From the NCBI GenBank assembly GCA_012031975.1, contig JAAUSA010000032.1:1-32726 (forward strand): DNA of 32,726 bases. Reading direction: 5' to 3'. The notes under the pieces are model-generated. The model did no database searches. It was given only the letters and a program-made list of their open reading frames with translations, and was not told where the DNA came from. The stretch comes from Alkalinema sp. RU_4_3. GTDB lineage: Bacteria > Cyanobacteriota > Cyanobacteriia > Leptolyngbyales > Leptolyngbyaceae. Positions 5,241 to 14,116 of the stretch are shown here, in pieces. The stretch's first letter is position 1, and every line of letters begins with the position of its first letter. The translations under genes and the position numbers were made by a program.

Positions 5241-6259
5241 ACTTCCTGGAGGTTTGCTTCAACGGTGGCTTCGATTCTGGCGACCTGAGATAGGGCTTCC
5301 TGGACTAGGGCGACGCCTGCACCGGGTTTAGAGGCCCCTTCGGTGAGGATGCGTTTCCATTGGCGGCTGCCGGGTTGGCCGGCGAACAGTTGCAGCATGT
5401 GGCGGGTGATCGTGTGGAGTTTGGTACCGCGATGTTGGGTCCATTCTTCTATGTAGGGATACATGGACTCGACGACCTCATGGCGGGTCAAGGGCTCGTT
5501 GGGGCTGCGGTAGAAGTCGTGATCGGCTTCGCTAAACAGGTAGGGATTGTCATAGGCGGCGCGGCCAATCATCACGGCATCCACTTCTAGCAATTGTGGT
5601 TTCGCTTGTTCTAGTGTTAGAAAACCACCGTTAATCTCAATCCAAATCTGTGAATATTCGCGTTTCAGTCGGTGTACATCTTCGTACCGCAAAGGTGGAA
5701 TGTCACGGTTTTCCTTGGGACTAAGACCCTGCAGCCAAGCTTTTCGGGCGTGGACGGAGAAGCGATCGCACCCTGCCGCTGCAACGGTGGTGACAAACTT
5801 CGCCATTGACTCATAGCTATCCTGTTCGTCTACGCCAATGCGATGCTTTACTGTCACGGGAATTCGAGTTGCAGCTTTCATGGCGCTAATGCAATCGGCG
5901 ACGCGATCGGGATCGAGCATCAGACAGGCCCCAAAGTTGCCATCCTGTACCCGACTGCTAGGACAGCCGACGTTGAGATTGATCTCGTTATAGCCCAAGG
6001 ATTCCGCCAGTCTGGCGCAGTTGGCCAGCTCCGTTGGATTGTCTCCACCGACCTGTAGTACGATCGGCCCTTCCTCGGGCGAAAACCCCAGGAGTTTTTC
6101 CAGGTCCCCAAACTTAATGGCCTGGGCGGTCACCATTTCTGTGTACAGCAGGGTTTGCCGGGAGATCTGCCGCATGAAGTAGCGGAAATGGCGATCGGTG
6201 CGATCCATCATGGGAGCGACACTGAGGGGATAGTTGGGGAGGTTGGGGTTGGGGACCAT
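5237..6259 (-). CDS. dusA: tRNA-dihydrouridine synthase A
   Basis: This FMN enzyme reduces uridines in the D-loop of tRNA (DusA acts on U20/U20a). The 340-residue TIM-barrel protein has the FMN-binding start LSVAPMMDRTDRHFRYFMR and the substrate and catalytic segment NLNVGCPSSRVQDGNFGACLM, with catalytic Cys99. It also has the basic RNA-binding motif KHRIG and the FMN phosphate loop (INGGF ... VMIGRAAYDNPYLF). The residues MDRTD and CPSSRVQ are characteristic of the DusA subgroup. It starts 3 bp after the end of the hydrolase-fold gene on the same strand, so the two are probably co-transcribed, with dusA second. Confidence 0.95.
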   Translation of the reverse strand: MVPNPNLPNYPLSVAPMMDRTDRHFRYFMRQISRQTLLYTEMVTAQAIKFGDLEKLLGFSPEEGPIVLQVGGDNPTELANCARLAESLGYNEINLNVGCPSSRVQDGNFGACLMLDPDRVADCISAMKAATRIPVTVKHRIGVDEQDSYESMAKFVTTVAAAGCDRFSVHARKAWLQGLSPKENRDIPPLRYEDVHRLKREYSQIWIEINGGFLTLEQAKPQLLEVDAVMIGRAAYDNPYLFSEADHDFYRSPNEPLTRHEVVESMYPYIEEWTQHRGTKLHTITRHMLQLFAGQPGSRQWKRILTEGASKPGAGVALVQEALSQVARIEATVEANLQEV

Positions 6260-8726: not shown

Positions 8727-8737
8727 GGTGTGTGGTT

Positions 8738-9571
8738 ATGAAACGACGGAATTTGATTTTGGGGGCTTCGGGGTTGGTGGCGGCGACGGCTGCTGGGAGT
8801 TTGGCAGAGGTTAAGGTTCCGGTGGGGTTGCCGAAGAAGATGCCTGGGGTTTTGGAGTTGCCGGGGAAGATGGTGATGCTGGGTAAGGATTTGATGGGTT
8901 ATTTGAGTTTGCCTATGGGTAAAACTTCTTCGCCTGCGGTGTTGGTGCTGATGGAGGCGTTTGGGTTGAATGCGAATATTAAGGGGGTTTGCGATCGTCT
9001 TGCTAAGGCGGGTTATGCGGCGTTGGCTCCGGATCTCTACCATGGGGAGACGTTTGCTTATTCGGATGCTCCGAAGGCGATCGAGAAGTTGAAGACGATT
9101 AAGGATGAGCAGGTTGTTAAGGAGCTGGAGTTGGGGTTGAAGTTTTTGGCTGGGGAGAAGATGGTGGATCAGGGTAAGAAGGTGGGGGTGACGGGGTTTT
9201 GTATGGGGGGGCGGTTGGTGTTTTTGGCGGCGGCGGCTTTTCCGAAGCAAATTGGTGCTGGGGTTGCTTTTTATGGTGGGGGGATTGCGGCGGATCGGAT
9301 CCGTTTGGGCGGCCCAGTTTGTTGAATCGGATTCCTGAGATTGGGGCTCCGGTGATGTTTATGTATGGGGCGGAGGATGCTTATATTGTGGCGGAGGAGC
9401 ATGGGCGGGTGGCTTTGGCGATGTCTAAGGCGAAGAAGTCCTATAGTTTGAATGTTTTGCGGGGGCGGGCATGGGTTTATGAGCGATCGGCGGGATAGTT
9501 ATAATCAGCCTGCGGCGGATGAGGCTTGGGGAATGACGTTGGCGTTCTTTGGGCGGCATTTGGGAGGGTGA
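8738..9571 (+). CDS. Dienelactone hydrolase family protein, two frameshifts
   Basis: This alpha/beta hydrolase with a Cys-Asp-His triad hydrolyses dienelactones or related esters. The nucleophile motif GFCMGG (Cys155) is in the first frame (8738-9325). The Asp segment APVMFMYGAEDAYI is in a second frame (about 9300-9465). The His segment GHGFMSDRRDSYNQPAADEA is in a third (about 9465-9571). So all three catalytic residues exist but in different frames. The first break equals one missing base near 9300. The second equals one extra G in the run at 9460-9465. The N-terminus KRRNLILGASGLVAATAAG resembles a twin-arginine signal peptide, suggesting export. The start ATG is 8738, 11 bp after the nitroreductase stop. 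This is either a pseudogene or has sequence errors. Confidence 0.75.
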
Positions 9572-9639: not shown

Positions 9640-11255
9640 TTGGTTGCCCCCTTATTGATTTTTTTATGCGTTTTGCTTCTGTGGGTCTGTCGGTGGGAGT
9701 GGTGCGATCGCGTCTCTTTTTGCGAGGCTGGATTGGCGGCGGAGAAGTTGACGCTGAAGTTTGGGCCGTTTGAGCAGACGGTTTCGGTGAATGATGTGGA
9801 GTCCTATGCGAAGACGGGGAAGGTTCCGGATTCGATGGGGGTGTATAAGCCGTTTCTCAGTGAGAGTGTGCGGAAGTCGCTGAATGCGAAGTTGGATATT
9901 GATCCGAAGTTAGGGAGTAAGGTTGTTGATGATTTGATGCGGTCTCCCATGGCGAAGCAGGCGTTGGCGACGCTTTTGCCTGCGGTGCCGGGGTTGAGTA
10001 CGGAGACGTTGCAGGCGGGGTTGACGATCGCGGCGAAGCAGTTTAATGGGTTGGATGCGGTGCGGGTGATTCGAGCTATTCCGCAGGATACGATTACGGT
10101 GGATGTGTCAGAGGCAATTGGGATTGCTTCTAAGGTGAATTTTAGCTATTTCAAGACGCAGGCGATGGGCTCTATTCTGCAGCGGGGGCTGACGGTGGAG
10201 GGGGCGAAGTTTACGTCAGATTTTGATGCGGCGGATAAGGGGGCTTTGCCTGTGGAGGTTGAGTCACGGGTGTTGGTGGATGAGAAGCGCGATCGACGTT
10301 TACCTGTCGATATCTACACGCCGAATACTCAGCTTGCAAATATGCTTAAGGTCGATCGCCCTTTGGTGGTGATTAGTCCGGGGTATGAGGCGAGTAAGAA
10401 TTTTCTGGCCTATTTGGGGGAGCATCTGGCGAGTCACGGCTTTACGGTGGTGGCGCTGGAGCATCCGTCGTCTGTGGTGAAGGGGCAGATTCAGTTGGAT
10501 GCGCTGGTGCCGGCTGATGAGGTGGTGAATCGTCCGAAGGATATTAGTTTTGTGCTGGATAGTTTGGCAACGCGGGATAAGCAACTGTTTAATACTGAGC
10601 AGGTGATGGTGATTGGCCATTCCTTTGGGGGCTATACGGCGCTGGCGCTGGCGGGGGCGGAGCTAAGGCTCGATGAGTTGCGTAAGTTCTGTGATACGTC
10701 TACGGTGCTCGATCGCGTTCCGGCGGACTGGTTGCAATGTTCGGCGACGAAGCTGAAGGAGAGTACGTTGAGTTTGCGTGATCGGCGGGTGAAGCAGGTG
10801 ATGGCGCTGAATCCGGCGATTGGCAATATTTTTGGGAAGGCGGGGTTATCTAAAGTTGAGACGCCGACGATGATTTTTAGTAGTAGTGAGGATGCTTTGA
10901 CGCCTGCGTTGTCGCAGCAGTTGCAGCCGTTTTGCAGTTGCCGATGCCGAAGTATTTGATGACGGCGATCGGGGGGACGCATTTGAGTGTGAGTGATCCG
11001 AGGAGTTTTAATCGGACCTTGGCGGATAGTACGTTGGTCAAGGAGAAGCGGGGGGCGGAGATGGATGGGTTGCGATCGGCGTTGCGGGGGGTGACGCTGG
11101 CCTATGCGTCTCAGATGACGACGCAGGGGAAGGTCTATTTGCCGTTTTTGTCGGCGGGGTATGTGCAGGGGCGATCGACTGGGGCGGTGGGGTTGCGGTT
11201 GAATCAGAGTTTGCCGGGGTCGGTGACGAAGTTTTTGGAGTTGGCGGCGAGGTAG
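9640..11255 (+). CDS. DUF1400-containing alpha/beta hydrolase, frameshifted
   Basis: This cyanobacterial architecture combines an N-terminal DUF1400 helical domain (AEKLTLKFGPFEQTVSVNDV, then segments to about residue 175) with a C-terminal alpha/beta hydrolase related to PAF-acetylhydrolase/dienelactone hydrolases. The oxyanion segment is VVISPGYEASKNFLAYLGEH. The nucleophile elbow is GHSFGG (Ser328 counted from 9640), and the Asp segment is PTMIFSSSEDALTPA. The His segment (LMTAIGGTHLSVSDP) lies in another frame, 10932-11255, after a break equal to one missing base near 10925. The real start is uncertain: a hydrophobic leader is spread over two frames around 9640-9740 (MRFASVGLSVG at 9666), suggesting another indel there. 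The protein is probably exported. Confidence 0.78.
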
Positions 11256-11299
11256 GAGGAGGAGGCCCTCACCCTCAAATACCTACCATTCAGGGATTT

Positions 11300-11348
11300 A
11301 ACCCGTTTCAACGGGTTTGAGCTGTTAGCCTGGGATTTTAATCCCAGG
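11300..11348. repeat. Palindromic repeat element (two stem-loops with GCTGTTAGC linker)
   Basis: AACCCGTT (11300-11307) pairs with AACGGGTT (11310-11317). The linker GCTGTTAGC (11321-11329) follows, then CCTGGGATT (11329-11337) pairs with AATCCCAGG (11340-11348). The order hairpin, linker, hairpin and the linker sequence match the element at 3541-3649, while the stems differ in sequence. It lies between the DUF1400 hydrolase and the reverse-transcriptase remnant, where the 5' half of the RT gene would be expected. Confidence 0.7.
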
Positions 11349-11800
11349 TGGGCCATGCGATCGTCGGTTAGCACCCGAATTGAATTCGCCAGCAGTAGCA
11401 GGATTGGGGCTAGGGGTAGTTCCTCTGGGCGACTCGACTTGCGCTCTTCTCAGACGATCGCGCTCAGCTAGCCGAAGCCCGCCACCAGCTCGAATCCTAC
11501 CTAGCCCAGCTCTATCTCAAAATCCATCCGGTCAAAAGCCAACTATTTGAAACGCGGCTGGGGGCTAATTTTGTCGGCTTTCGGGTGATGCCCGATCGGA
11601 TTCGTGTCCGCAATGACAATCTTCGCCGTTCGCGGCTGCGGCTGGCCCAGCGGCTGGTGGAGCATCGGCAGGGCAAGATCGATCGCGTCAGTCTCGATCG
11701 GGGCTTTGAAAGCTGGATGGCCCATCTTCAGCATGGGGATACTTGGCGGTTGCGATCGCAGATCGGCATTATCTGGGACCAACGATTAGCAAAGCTATAA
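11349..11800 (+). pseudogene. DGR-type reverse transcriptase, C-terminal remnant
   Basis: The readable part (open from 11420, stop at 11798-11800) encodes the end of a DGR/group II-like reverse transcriptase. It runs LALFSDDRAQLAEARHQLESYL, then LKIHPVKSQLFETR, then the thumb-boundary motif ANFVGFRVMPDR, a basic helix RRSRLRLAQRL and the tail SWMAHLQHGDTWRLRSQI. Full-length RTs of this type have about 300-400 residues. Here about 120 remain, so the palm motifs upstream are absent. Just before LALF, the DNA at 11429-11446 can be read as DDLALF only by removing one base and adding another, so the YxDD box looks degraded. The template repeat begins 26 bp after the stop. Identity as an RT is well supported by the C-terminal motifs. 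DGR membership rests on the adjacent TR/VR pair. Confidence 0.75.
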
Positions 11801-11826: not shown

Positions 11827-11948
11827 GCGGGGCGGTTCCTGGATCAACAATCCTAGGAATTGCCGCTCCGCCTACCGCAACAACAACTCGCCCGCCGATG
11901 CCAACAACAACATCGGTTTTCGAGTTGTGTGCGTCTCCCCCAGCACTC
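11827..11948 (+). repeat. DGR template repeat (TR)
   Basis: This 122-bp segment aligns without gaps to the variable repeat at 12896-13017 (offset 1069). It is rich in AAC/AAT codons when read in the target frame ([20 protein letters not shown]), as expected of DGR templates in which adenines mark mutable sites. Twenty positions differ between the copies. Sixteen are adenines in the TR, out of 26 adenines in the repeat. The rest are C11833, C11875, C11884 and C11944. The last 33 bases are identical except C11944, which lies in the part that would correspond to IMH*. It is non-coding in its own right and lies between the RT remnant and the target gene, all on the plus strand. Confidence 0.93.
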
Positions 11949-12161
11949 TTCTGCACCAGATCTTGACGGATGGGAATTCGTTGGGCGTGTCAAGAGAAGA
12001 GTCCAGACCTGCTCCGGCGATCGCTGGGTGATACAGGACAACTTAGGCGCTTGCTTAGGTTCGCCGTTGTTGCTCAGGATCCGAATACAAACCGCGACTT
12101 CAATAGCCTAGTAGAGCGATCGAACCGCTGGTTGAAGTCGCATCAAACTATTGCTTCTTCT

Positions 12162-13025
12162 ATGCCTACTCTGACCTTCAAGCCACATTCTGCCAAGATT
12201 CAGTACTTCACCGAAGATCTGGGCAAGAAGCTCTTGGGTAAGCACACCAGCCTTGACATGGTTTTCATTCCTGGTGGCAGGTTCACTATGGGATCGCCTG
12301 AGGGTGAACTAGAGAGGTTAGAGAGGGAAGGTCCCCAACACCTAGTCACTGTCCCCGAGTTTTTCATGGGACAGACTCCTGTGACTCAAGCTCAGTGGCG
12401 GCAAGTGGCGGGGTGGCCGCAGGTGGGGCGATCGCTCAAAGCAAATCCTTCTAACTTCAAAGGTGACGATTTGCCTGTTGAGCAGGTCTCCTGGTTCGCC
12501 GCTGAAGAGTTCTGTCTGCGGCTTAGTAAAAGCACAGGTAGGCGTTATCGATTGCCTTCTGAGGCTGAATGGGAATATGCCTGTCGGGCGGGGACGAATA
12601 CGCCTTTTCACTTTGGGGAGACGATCGATGCTGAGTATGCCAATTATCAGGCTGTAGATGAGAAGTTTGGTGAAACAGTTTATCCTGGCATTTATGGTTC
12701 AGGTAGGTTTGGTAACTATCGGCAAAAGACCACTCCTGTCAAAGAATTTCCGCCGAATAAATTTGGCCTGTATGACATGCATGGCAATGTTTGGGAGTGG
12801 TGCGAGGACCATTGGCATGGTGATTATAAAAGTGCGCCGATCGATGGTAAATCTTGGGTGGATAAAACGGCTGAAACCAAAGCTAGTAGGGTGTTGCGGG
12901 GTGGTTCCTGGCTCTTCGCTCCTAGGTTTTGCCGCTCCGCCTCTCGCATCAAGCTCTCGCCCGCCGATGCCTACAGCTCCTTCGGTTTTCGAGTTGTGTG
13001 CGTCTCCCCCAGGACTCAGCCCTAG
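12162..13025 (+). CDS. DGR target: formylglycine-generating-enzyme (SUMF1)-fold variable protein
   Basis: The 287-residue protein is almost entirely one FGE-sulfatase/SUMF1 (C-type-lectin-like) domain. Its motifs in order are MVFIPGGRFTMGSPEGE, PVTQAQWRQV, LPVEQVSWFAAEEFC, RLPSEAEWEYACRAG, FGLYDMHGNVWEWCEDHW, RVLRGGSW and [14 protein letters not shown]. The last 43 residues are encoded by the variable repeat, so the ligand-facing C-terminal loop is the diversified surface, as in other DGR targets. The start at 12162 puts the domain near the N-terminus. The frame is open 64 codons further upstream to 11970 ([19 protein letters not shown] ... LVERSNRWLKSH), which may be leftover coding sequence of a longer N-terminus. 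It is not expected to be a sulfatase-activating enzyme. A ligand-binding role is inferred from known DGRs. Confidence 0.9.
   Translation: MPTLTFKPHSAKIQYFTEDLGKKLLGKHTSLDMVFIPGGRFTMGSPEGELERLEREGPQHLVTVPEFFMGQTPVTQAQWRQVAGWPQVGRSLKANPSNFKGDDLPVEQVSWFAAEEFCLRLSKSTGRRYRLPSEAEWEYACRAGTNTPFHFGETIDAEYANYQAVDEKFGETVYPGIYGSGRFGNYRQKTTPVKEFPPNKFGLYDMHGNVWEWCEDHWHGDYKSAPIDGKSWVDKTAETKASRVLRGGSWLFAPRFCRSASRIKLSPADAYSSFGFRVVCVSPRTQP
12896..13017 (+). repeat. DGR variable repeat (VR)
   Basis: The variable repeat is the last 122 bp of matching sequence in the target gene, ending 8 bp before the end of its stop codon. Relative to the template, 16 adenines are replaced (9 by T, 5 by C, 2 by G). Twelve codons change amino acid: I-N-N, N, Y, N-N-N, N-N-N, I in the template become L-F-A, F, S, I-K-L, Y-S-S, F here. 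Framework codons between them ([20 protein letters not shown]) are untouched. The 3' part, GAGTTGTGTGCGTCTCCCCC, is GC-rich and identical in both copies, the position of the IMH element. Confidence 0.93.
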
Positions 13026-13298
13026 CCCTCTGCTCTTTTGCCCTCTTGCCCTTTGCGCTATCGAAAGACAGATAGTTCACGTTTCGCGCCAAGCGCGATC
13101 GATTTTCTTACAAAATTTCTGACCACCCAATGACTCCGGTCCCCCCAGGATTGGGGGCTAGGGGGCCAGCCAGCCAATGCGGAGTAGTACAAATTTTCAG
13201 CCCTAGGGAAGATGTCGATCGATGCTCGATTGCGCCAAAATAGCACTTATGTATTGAATGAAGGTGCATCTAGGCAAACCCTAGAACCGATCGCATCC
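13018..13298 (+). other. Region after the VR without a gene
   Basis: The first part (13018-13054) is a pyrimidine-rich tract with repeated GCCCT units directly beside the VR. At 13142-13157 CCCCC and GGGGG form a short GC hairpin, followed by a G-rich stretch. DGRs often carry a hairpin just past the VR, but this one lies about 125 bp away, so a role is unproven. No credible coding sequence was seen. Confidence 0.4.
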
Positions 13299-14116
13299 AT
13301 GGAAACAGATTCCCTCTTTTACCGCCTATTCGAGGAAAAACCAAAACTCCTCTTTGAACTTCTCGGCGAAAAACCGCCTAGGACCACCTATAGTTTCGGT
13401 GCCCATGAGTTGAAGCAGACCAGTCTCCGGACGGATGGTGTGTTGAAACCGCGATCGGCAAAGCGTCCTATTTTCTTCCTAGAAGCCCAAGGTTATCCCG
13501 ATCGCCACAAAAATTCTACGCTAGCTTCTTCGCCAAAATCTTCCTCTATCTTCGGGAGTATGCCCCACCCAATGACTGGCGAGCCGTAGTGCTGTTCACC
13601 AGAAAATCCTTCGATCCAGGTCCATCAATCCACTATCGGGAATTCTTCGAGAGCGGTCGATTGCGGCGGATTTACCTTGATGAGCTACCGATCGAGATGG
13701 GTGACCTTTCTCCTGAGATGGCGGCACTCCAGTTAATTGGGATGGGTGATAATGATGCGATCGATCGTGGCCGCATCCTCCTGGACCGTAATGACCAGAT
13801 CGCTGCGGATGTCACAGAGCATAAAAGAATCTTAGAATTAGTAGTGACGGTCTTTGTCCACAAATTTTCAAAGCTCAGTCGAGAGGAGATAATGAGTATG
13901 CTAGGCATTACTAGAGAGCTACGGAACAGCCGCTTCTTCCAAGACTTCAAGGAAGAAGGCCGAGAAGAAGGGCGGCAAGAAGGGCGAGAAGAAGGGCGAG
14001 AAGAACTCCTGTTAAACGTGGTCCCGATGTTGCTCCAAAACGGGATGTCTGTCGAAGCGATCGCCTCAAGCCTCAAGGTCTCAGTGGCCCAGGTCCAACA
14101 GGCGATCCCGTCATAA
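13299..14116 (+). CDS. DUF2887 / Rpn-like putative nuclease, frameshifted
   Basis: This is a cyanobacterial DUF2887 protein of the Rpn/PD-(D/E)XK group related to recombination-promoting nucleases. It begins METDSLFYRLFEEKPKLLFELLG. The nuclease core follows (TDGVLKPRSAKRPIFFLEAQGYPDRH, with D ... E-x-Q), then LPIEMGDLSPEMAALQLIGM and a basic/acidic helix containing repeated EEGR units (about 13949-14007). It ends in a small helix-turn-helix-like tail (GMSVEAIASSLKVSVAQVQQ). The frame breaks at a run of five A near 13510. Six A would give DRHKKFYASFFAKIF and join both parts. The break therefore looks like a homopolymer indel. The gene is adjacent to the DGR but is a common dispersed family, so association is not implied. 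Confidence 0.8.

What the first reader, a model, noticed from the sequence alone, without database searches (positions are those of the whole stretch)
11349..11800. The DGR reverse transcriptase is only a C-terminal fragment
Only about 120 codons remain, starting around the YxDD region, which itself looks damaged (11429-11446 needs two compensating indels to read DDLALF). The N-terminal palm motifs have no space, because the DUF1400 hydrolase and a hairpin repeat lie directly upstream. The TR and VR are nevertheless well preserved, including an intact target frame. Either inactivation is recent, or another RT in the genome works on this TR.
Basis: partly seen in the sequence, partly recalled or inferred. 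Interest (0 to 1): 0.75.

Follow-up and report, generated by a model that had tools for sequence, protein, structure and literature searches.

The report
Hypermutation cassette lost its reverse transcriptase
One of four copies of a protein-diversifying system in this cyanobacterium has lost the front two thirds of its copying enzyme next to a dispersed repeat, yet keeps the RNA template and target gene; related bacteria often carry such enzyme-less templates, and in some of them the template still looks in use, probably served by an enzyme encoded elsewhere.

Summary
Confirmed. At window 11420-11797 only the last ~120 codons of a DGR reverse transcriptase (RT) remain. Palm motifs and YVDD are gone. 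A dispersed repeat (47 genome hits) ends ~30 nt upstream, and Avd is also missing. TR (11827-11948), VR (12896-13017) and the FGE-type target frame are intact.

It holds four TRs: C72 (complete RT, Avd, two VRs), C171 (Avd, RT split by one indel), C111 (RT core deleted) and the window. So a possible trans RT exists. But the window VR differs from its TR at 3 non-adenine sites, against 0 in all four VRs of C72 and C171, so recent rewriting here is unlikely. Most likely this is a recently orphaned, now quiet copy.

Beyond the window, a structured RNA element lies 3' of the TR (24 pairs, 21 covarying); the window keeps it. A covariance model found 126 such TRs in 83 cyanobacterial genomes; about half lack a nearby RT. 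Several RT-less TRs feed their VR with adenine-only changes while an RT lies elsewhere, which favours trans action there.

RT-less DGR loci beside repeats are already published, so the locus is a new member of a known kind.

The parts
9640..11255 (+). DUF1400 alpha/beta hydrolase gene upstream, split over two frames (9640-10959 and 10932-11255)
   Evidence: PF07176 8e-25; ORF list
11272..11395 (+). dispersed, palindrome-bearing (MITE-like) repeat directly upstream of the RT remnant
   Evidence: 47 hits in the genome, copies aligned
11396..11425 (+). junction segment without RT homology, part of it similar to a short GGGGCTAGGGG repeat
11420..11800 (+). C-terminal remnant of a DGR reverse transcriptase (126 open codons plus stop), RT homology from about 11426
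11426..11449 (+). damaged catalytic YVDD site (4-nt insertion relative to the C171 RT)
   Evidence: DNA alignment, protein alignment
11827..11948 (+). template repeat (TR)
   Evidence: direct repeat D1; A-biased mismatches
11945..12040 (+). structured RNA element 3' of the TR, starting with the TR's ACTCTTC end
   Evidence: covariance model R1, 58.9 bits, E 7.2e-12; structure support
12162..13025 (+). target gene, FGE-sulfatase-type variable protein, intact frame, likely 287 aa
   Evidence: PF03781 2.3e-59
12896..13017 (+). variable repeat (VR) at the 3' end of the target gene, IMH at its end

Best explanation
This is an orphaned diversity-generating retroelement cassette. A rearrangement beside a dispersed MITE-like repeat removed avd and the first two thirds of the RT gene, including YVDD, so the locus cannot make an active RT. 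What remains is an RT 3' remnant, a TR with its structured 3' RNA, and an intact target gene whose VR was written from this TR in the past by adenine mutagenesis. Since then TR and VR have drifted at a few non-adenine sites, so the cassette is probably quiet now. The same genome has one complete Avd-RT cassette (C72) and one broken by a single indel (C171). Because the TR RNA is conserved, trans use is possible in principle. Shown: the truncation, the adjacent repeat, the other RTs, the A-biased TR/VR differences, the RNA element and the drift. Inferred: deletion mediated by the repeat, present inactivity, and possible rescue in trans.
For: Fragment covers RT profile 239-360 only; YVDD lost. 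Repeat with 47 genome hits next to the break. A second repeat-flanked RT deletion on C111: RT start directly after repeat copies, an N-terminal piece (residues 2-70), then a C-terminal piece just before the TR. No TR of C72, C171 or C111 explains the window VR (14, 13 and 20 non-A mismatches, against 3 for its own TR). Drift: 3 non-A mismatches, against 0 in C72 and C171 and at least 3 in only 2 of 49 RT-complete loci. Little decay of the remnant: 24 of 25 invariant columns after YVDD kept. TR RNA element kept, but the lowest-scoring of the four in the genome.
Against: RT-less TRs elsewhere show zero non-A drift and look active in trans, so the same could hold here at a low rate. One of the three non-A sites is near the 5' edge of the TR and may lie outside the copied tract. 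The genome is a 362-contig draft with several frameshifted genes nearby, so small errors are possible. No other genome of the same genus was held, so no sister strain dates the loss.
Confidence: 0.72

Rival explanations
1. The cassette is still active: the Avd-RT of C72 (or C171, if its indel is an error) recognises the window TR RNA through its 3' element and rewrites the window VR in trans.
For: Complete RT and Avd on C72. The window TR keeps the conserved RNA element. RT-less TRs in other genomes keep the fold (94.6% of cells paired, 21 of 24 pairs covarying) and several have VRs with adenine-only changes that fit only the RT-less TR while an RT lies elsewhere.
Against: 3 non-adenine TR/VR mismatches, against 0 in the cassettes with their own RT in this genome; the window ranks 11th of 12 among loci with an RT elsewhere; its RNA element scores lowest of the four in the genome.
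Confidence: 0.22
2. Assembly artefact: the real locus has a complete RT upstream and the assembler joined the wrong DNA at the repeat.
For: 362-contig draft; repeat copies often lie at contig ends; several split genes nearby.
Against: Repeat and RT remnant are separated only by ~30 nt without RT homology, so a misjoin inside the repeat would still leave the RT broken at that point. No unplaced RT N-terminus that could belong here was found: the only loose one is C111's own. Avd is missing too.
Confidence: 0.05
3. The 126-aa remnant is a functional protein of its own, for example an RNA-binding RT thumb domain that helps a trans RT.
For: Open frame of 126 codons; 24 of 25 invariant RT positions downstream of YVDD kept.
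Against: Remnants elsewhere differ in extent: C111 keeps an N-terminal piece and only the last codons, partial RTs in other genomes keep other parts, and many RT-less TRs have no remnant at all. Recent loss explains the open frame equally well.
Confidence: 0.03

Closest known systems
Thiohalocapsa PB-PSB1 incomplete DGR loci (PMC10907252)
   Same: Multi-DGR genome; MITE-like repeat arrays replaced the RT gene at DGR 4 and 5; [quoted passage not shown]
   Different: Here the locus keeps its own TR with a 3' RNA element and an RT 3' remnant, and its TR/VR pair has drifted; PB-PSB1 DGR 4 and 5 targets match the TR of DGR 2
Cyanobacterial DGRs with remote variable proteins (PMC7517822)
   Same: C-type-lectin-fold targets, targets dispersed in the genome, one case (all3226) with remnant TR-VR homology and no RT nearby
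   Different: Here an RT remnant, a complete RT elsewhere in the genome and the TR RNA structure are documented
Bordetella phage BPP-1 DGR (the reference DGR; from own knowledge, not compared by a tool here)
   Same: TR/VR adenine mutagenesis, IMH/IMH* difference, RT plus Avd, RNA flanking the TR needed
   Different: Cellular FGE-type target; RT lies before the TR in the complete cassettes here; the window locus lacks the RT core and Avd

Membership tests
Diversity-generating retroelement (complete, autonomous) | Reverse transcriptase with palm motifs and YxDD | tested here: not met
   Only profile 239-360 of 364 remains and YVDD is destroyed
Diversity-generating retroelement (complete, autonomous) | Accessory protein Avd at the locus | tested here: not met
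   Avd found on C72 and C171 (NF033474 7.2e-36 and 4.9e-39); the PF05635 search, which did reach those two weakly, has no hit on the window contig, and the upstream space is DUF1400 plus repeat
DGR-derived TR/VR cassette | TR and VR near-repeats differing mainly at TR adenines | tested here: met
   16/25 A and 3/88 non-A changed, p 1.4e-10
DGR-derived TR/VR cassette | VR at the 3' end of a target with FGE / C-type-lectin-type domain | tested here: met
   PF03781 2.3e-59; VR 12896-13017, target stop at 13025
DGR-derived TR/VR cassette | IMH/IMH* difference at the repeat 3' end | tested here: met
   TR AGCACTC against VR AGGACTC, as in the other loci
DGR-derived TR/VR cassette | Structured RNA flanking the TR | tested here: met
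   Covariance model hit 58.9 bits at 11945-12040
[quoted passage not shown]
   3 non-A mismatches besides the IMH difference
Active DGR target | Adenine-biased VR diversity in a population | not testable with these tools
   No reads or sister strains held

The most novel reading that the evidence does not exclude
In cyanobacteria, structured TR RNAs form a distributed system: one or a few Avd-RT complexes serve several RT-less target-TR modules in trans, recognising a common 3' RNA element, and the window locus is such a module or on its way to becoming one. The element (24 pairs, 21 covarying) had no Rfam match in the window and marks about as many RT-less as RT-bearing TRs.
Probability: 0.3. 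Interest if true: 0.72.

Novelty: new member of a known kind. Interest (0 to 1): 0.5.

Why it matters
The locus is a clean example of how a hypermutation cassette can decay: RT and Avd are lost beside a dispersed repeat while the template RNA and the target remain. The comparison it prompted gives a covariance model that finds DGR templates without their RT, and shows that RT-less templates are about as common as RT-bearing ones among 291 sampled cyanobacterial genomes. Some of these RT-less pairs show adenine-only change with an RT elsewhere in the genome, so whether one DGR RT serves many templates in trans becomes directly testable.

Tried and rejected
Rfam at gathering threshold on the window: no hit. 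Alternative templates for the window VR (TRs of C72, C171, C111): rejected, 13-20 non-A mismatches. A free RT N-terminus elsewhere that could belong to this locus: only C111's own. Sister strains: none of the same genus among the searched relatives; the GTDB scan gave RT relatives at 50-62% identity, none close, and it may leave out records of the window's own or a very near genome. A pattern using the literal ACTCTTC/GAAGAGT stem missed many TRs because the outer stem itself covaries; the covariance model replaced it. PF05635 is a poor Avd detector here (17.5 and 13.4 bits on the true Avd genes, below its cut-off); NF033474 and PF22296 settled it. The Handa 2025 paper on DGR RNA, cited in PMC12691664, is not in the library, so the element was not compared with the BPP-1 RNA structure.

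Full report
Observation. The window is one whole contig (C244, 32,726 bases) of a 5.25-Mb draft genome in 362 contigs; the RT relatives found in named genomes are mostly cyanobacterial. The only RT-like frame at the locus is 11420-11797. It matches DGR RTs from profile position 239 to 360 of 364 and is 62% identical to an RT on contig C171 of the same genome. DNA homology to that RT starts at 11426, at the YVDD segment, which carries a 4-nt insertion; the frame reads LWATRLALF where relatives read LRYVDDFALF. So motifs before YVDD are absent and YVDD itself is destroyed. Downstream of YVDD the fragment keeps 24 of 25 columns that are invariant in 13 other RTs.

What took the place of the RT. 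Positions 11272-11395 are a dispersed, palindrome-bearing repeat with 47 hits in the genome. About 30 nt without RT homology, part of it similar to another short repeat, separate it from the RT remnant. Upstream lies a DUF1400 hydrolase. C171 and C72 carry an avd gene just before their RT (NF033474 4.9e-39 and 7.2e-36); the window does not. Contig C111 shows a second, different loss: repeat copies, then an RT start and N-terminal piece, then a jump to the last RT codons, then a TR (the C-terminal piece was read by eye). Four repeat hits fall in about 36 kb around the DGR loci where 0.32 are expected (a rough estimate, because repeats also favour contig ends).

TR, VR and target. TR 11827-11948 and VR 12896-13017 differ at 16 of 25 adenines and 3 of 88 other sites. 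The target, most likely 12162-13025 (287 aa), is an FGE-sulfatase-type protein, one of about ten such genes in the assembly.

The other DGRs of this genome. DNA and covariance searches find four TRs: C72 (80.4 bits), C111 (69.4), C171 (68.0) and the window (58.9). C72 has a complete 351-aa RT, Avd and two VRs; C171 has Avd, an RT split by a single-base indel, and two VRs. Each VR of C72, C171 and the window fits only its own TR. C72 and C171 pairs show 0 non-A mismatches in all four VRs; the window shows 3. Targets on C181 (two) and C305 share non-A positions with each other but with no TR in the assembly. C261 and C258 also hold targets for which no TR was found.

A structured TR RNA. Downstream of the TR, starting with the TR's own 3' end (ACTCTTC) and closing with GAAGAGT, lies a conserved element. 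In 38 sequences from other genomes the consensus has 24 pairs, 13 with changes on both sides. The model built from these, without any sequence of this genome, finds the window element with E 7e-12. Nothing in the window reached an Rfam gathering score.

How common are RT-less TRs? In 291 cyanobacterial genomes, drawn evenly from the class, the model finds 126 TR elements in 83 genomes. Combined with an RT profile search of the same genomes, 56 have a full RT within 5 kb, 14 a partial one and 56 none detected; the last count includes C111, whose remnant is short, and a few TRs near contig ends. A deeper search of 31 of the genomes without a full RT found no full-length DGR RT, only fragments and what look like other RT types. 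The RT-less elements, with the window and C111 included, keep the fold: 94.6% of cells paired and 21 of 24 pairs with changes on both sides, against 97.1% and 21 of 24 in RT-bearing loci; sliding the partners drops pairing to 34-49%. The alignments are fitted to the model, so the percentages lean upward in both groups.

Are RT-less TRs used? I counted non-A mismatches between each TR and its best local VR. RT complete in place, 49 loci: 0 in 40, 1 in 6, 2 in one, then 8 and 9. RT absent or broken here but present elsewhere, 12 loci: 0 in 6, 1 in 3, then 2, 3 (the window) and 12. No full RT found anywhere, 10 loci: 0 in 5, 1 in 2, 2 in 2, 6 in one. Zero mismatches are somewhat rarer without a local RT (11 of 21 against 40 of 49, p 0.018, window left out). 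In G124, G040, G278 and G226 the RT-less VRs fit only their own RT-less TR (0 non-A) and not the TR beside the RT (16 or more mismatches). The simplest reading there is a distant RT copying the RT-less TR in trans; RT loss too recent for drift is the alternative.

Verdict on the window. The RT is truly broken, and a misjoin inside the repeat would not undo that, since the RT homology stops within about 30 nt of it. The loss is recent enough that the remnant, TR, VR and target frame are well preserved, but old enough for three non-A substitutions. Among the 12 loci with an RT elsewhere the window ranks 11th. I therefore favour a quiet, orphaned cassette over active trans use, without excluding the latter.

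Known versus new. Incomplete DGR loci with MITE-like repeats in place of the RT, and trans diversification judged by non-adenine identity, are described for Thiohalocapsa PB-PSB1 (PMC10907252). Remote targets and a TR-VR remnant without RT are described for cyanobacteria (PMC7517822). High TR-RNA expression and a predicted structural role of its flanks are discussed in PMC12691664. The window is a new member of that kind. What I did not find in the paper searches is the covariation-supported TR 3' element and a survey of RT-less TRs; most subscription papers are not in the library, so this is no proof of novelty.

Noticed in passing
L044 (contig C111) 1247-1996: Second DGR with its RT core deleted: repeat copies, RT N-terminal piece (about 1449-1650), RT C-terminal codons, TR 1783-1913 and the RNA element 1907-1996; no VR or target on this 3.3-kb contig.
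   Followed up: yes
L043 (contig C171) 1712-2762: DGR RT split by a single-base indel, with Avd and two VRs that match the TR at every non-adenine site; could be a sequencing error or a recent break.
   Followed up: partly
L042 (contig C72) 2728-3387: An ORF that looks like a Uma2-type (DUF820-like) protein sits between the complete DGR RT and its TR; family not checked by a search.
   Followed up: no
L045 (contig C181) 3189-3314 and 4762-4887; L047 (contig C305) 45-170: Three FGE targets with VRs that share non-adenine positions but fit no TR in the assembly; their template is missing or unassembled. Two copies of the dispersed repeat lie between the two C181 VRs.
   Followed up: partly
L274 (genome G296) around 5480-6096; also L250 (G039) and L282 (G208): TR elements in genomes of one or two contigs in which no DGR RT was detected; in G296 the local VR has 0 non-adenine and 14 adenine changes. 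Unexplained: very recent RT loss, or an undetected RT.
   Followed up: partly
window 8732-9498, 9640-11255, 13212-14116: Three neighbouring genes (dienelactone hydrolase, DUF1400, DUF2887) are each split over two frames, so this part of the draft may carry indel errors or be decaying.
   Followed up: partly
L002, L005, L006 (contigs C110 and C161): Other RT genes (they look like group II intron maturases) that are interrupted: C110 is split over two frames, C161 lacks its middle part relative to the C100 copy.
   Followed up: no
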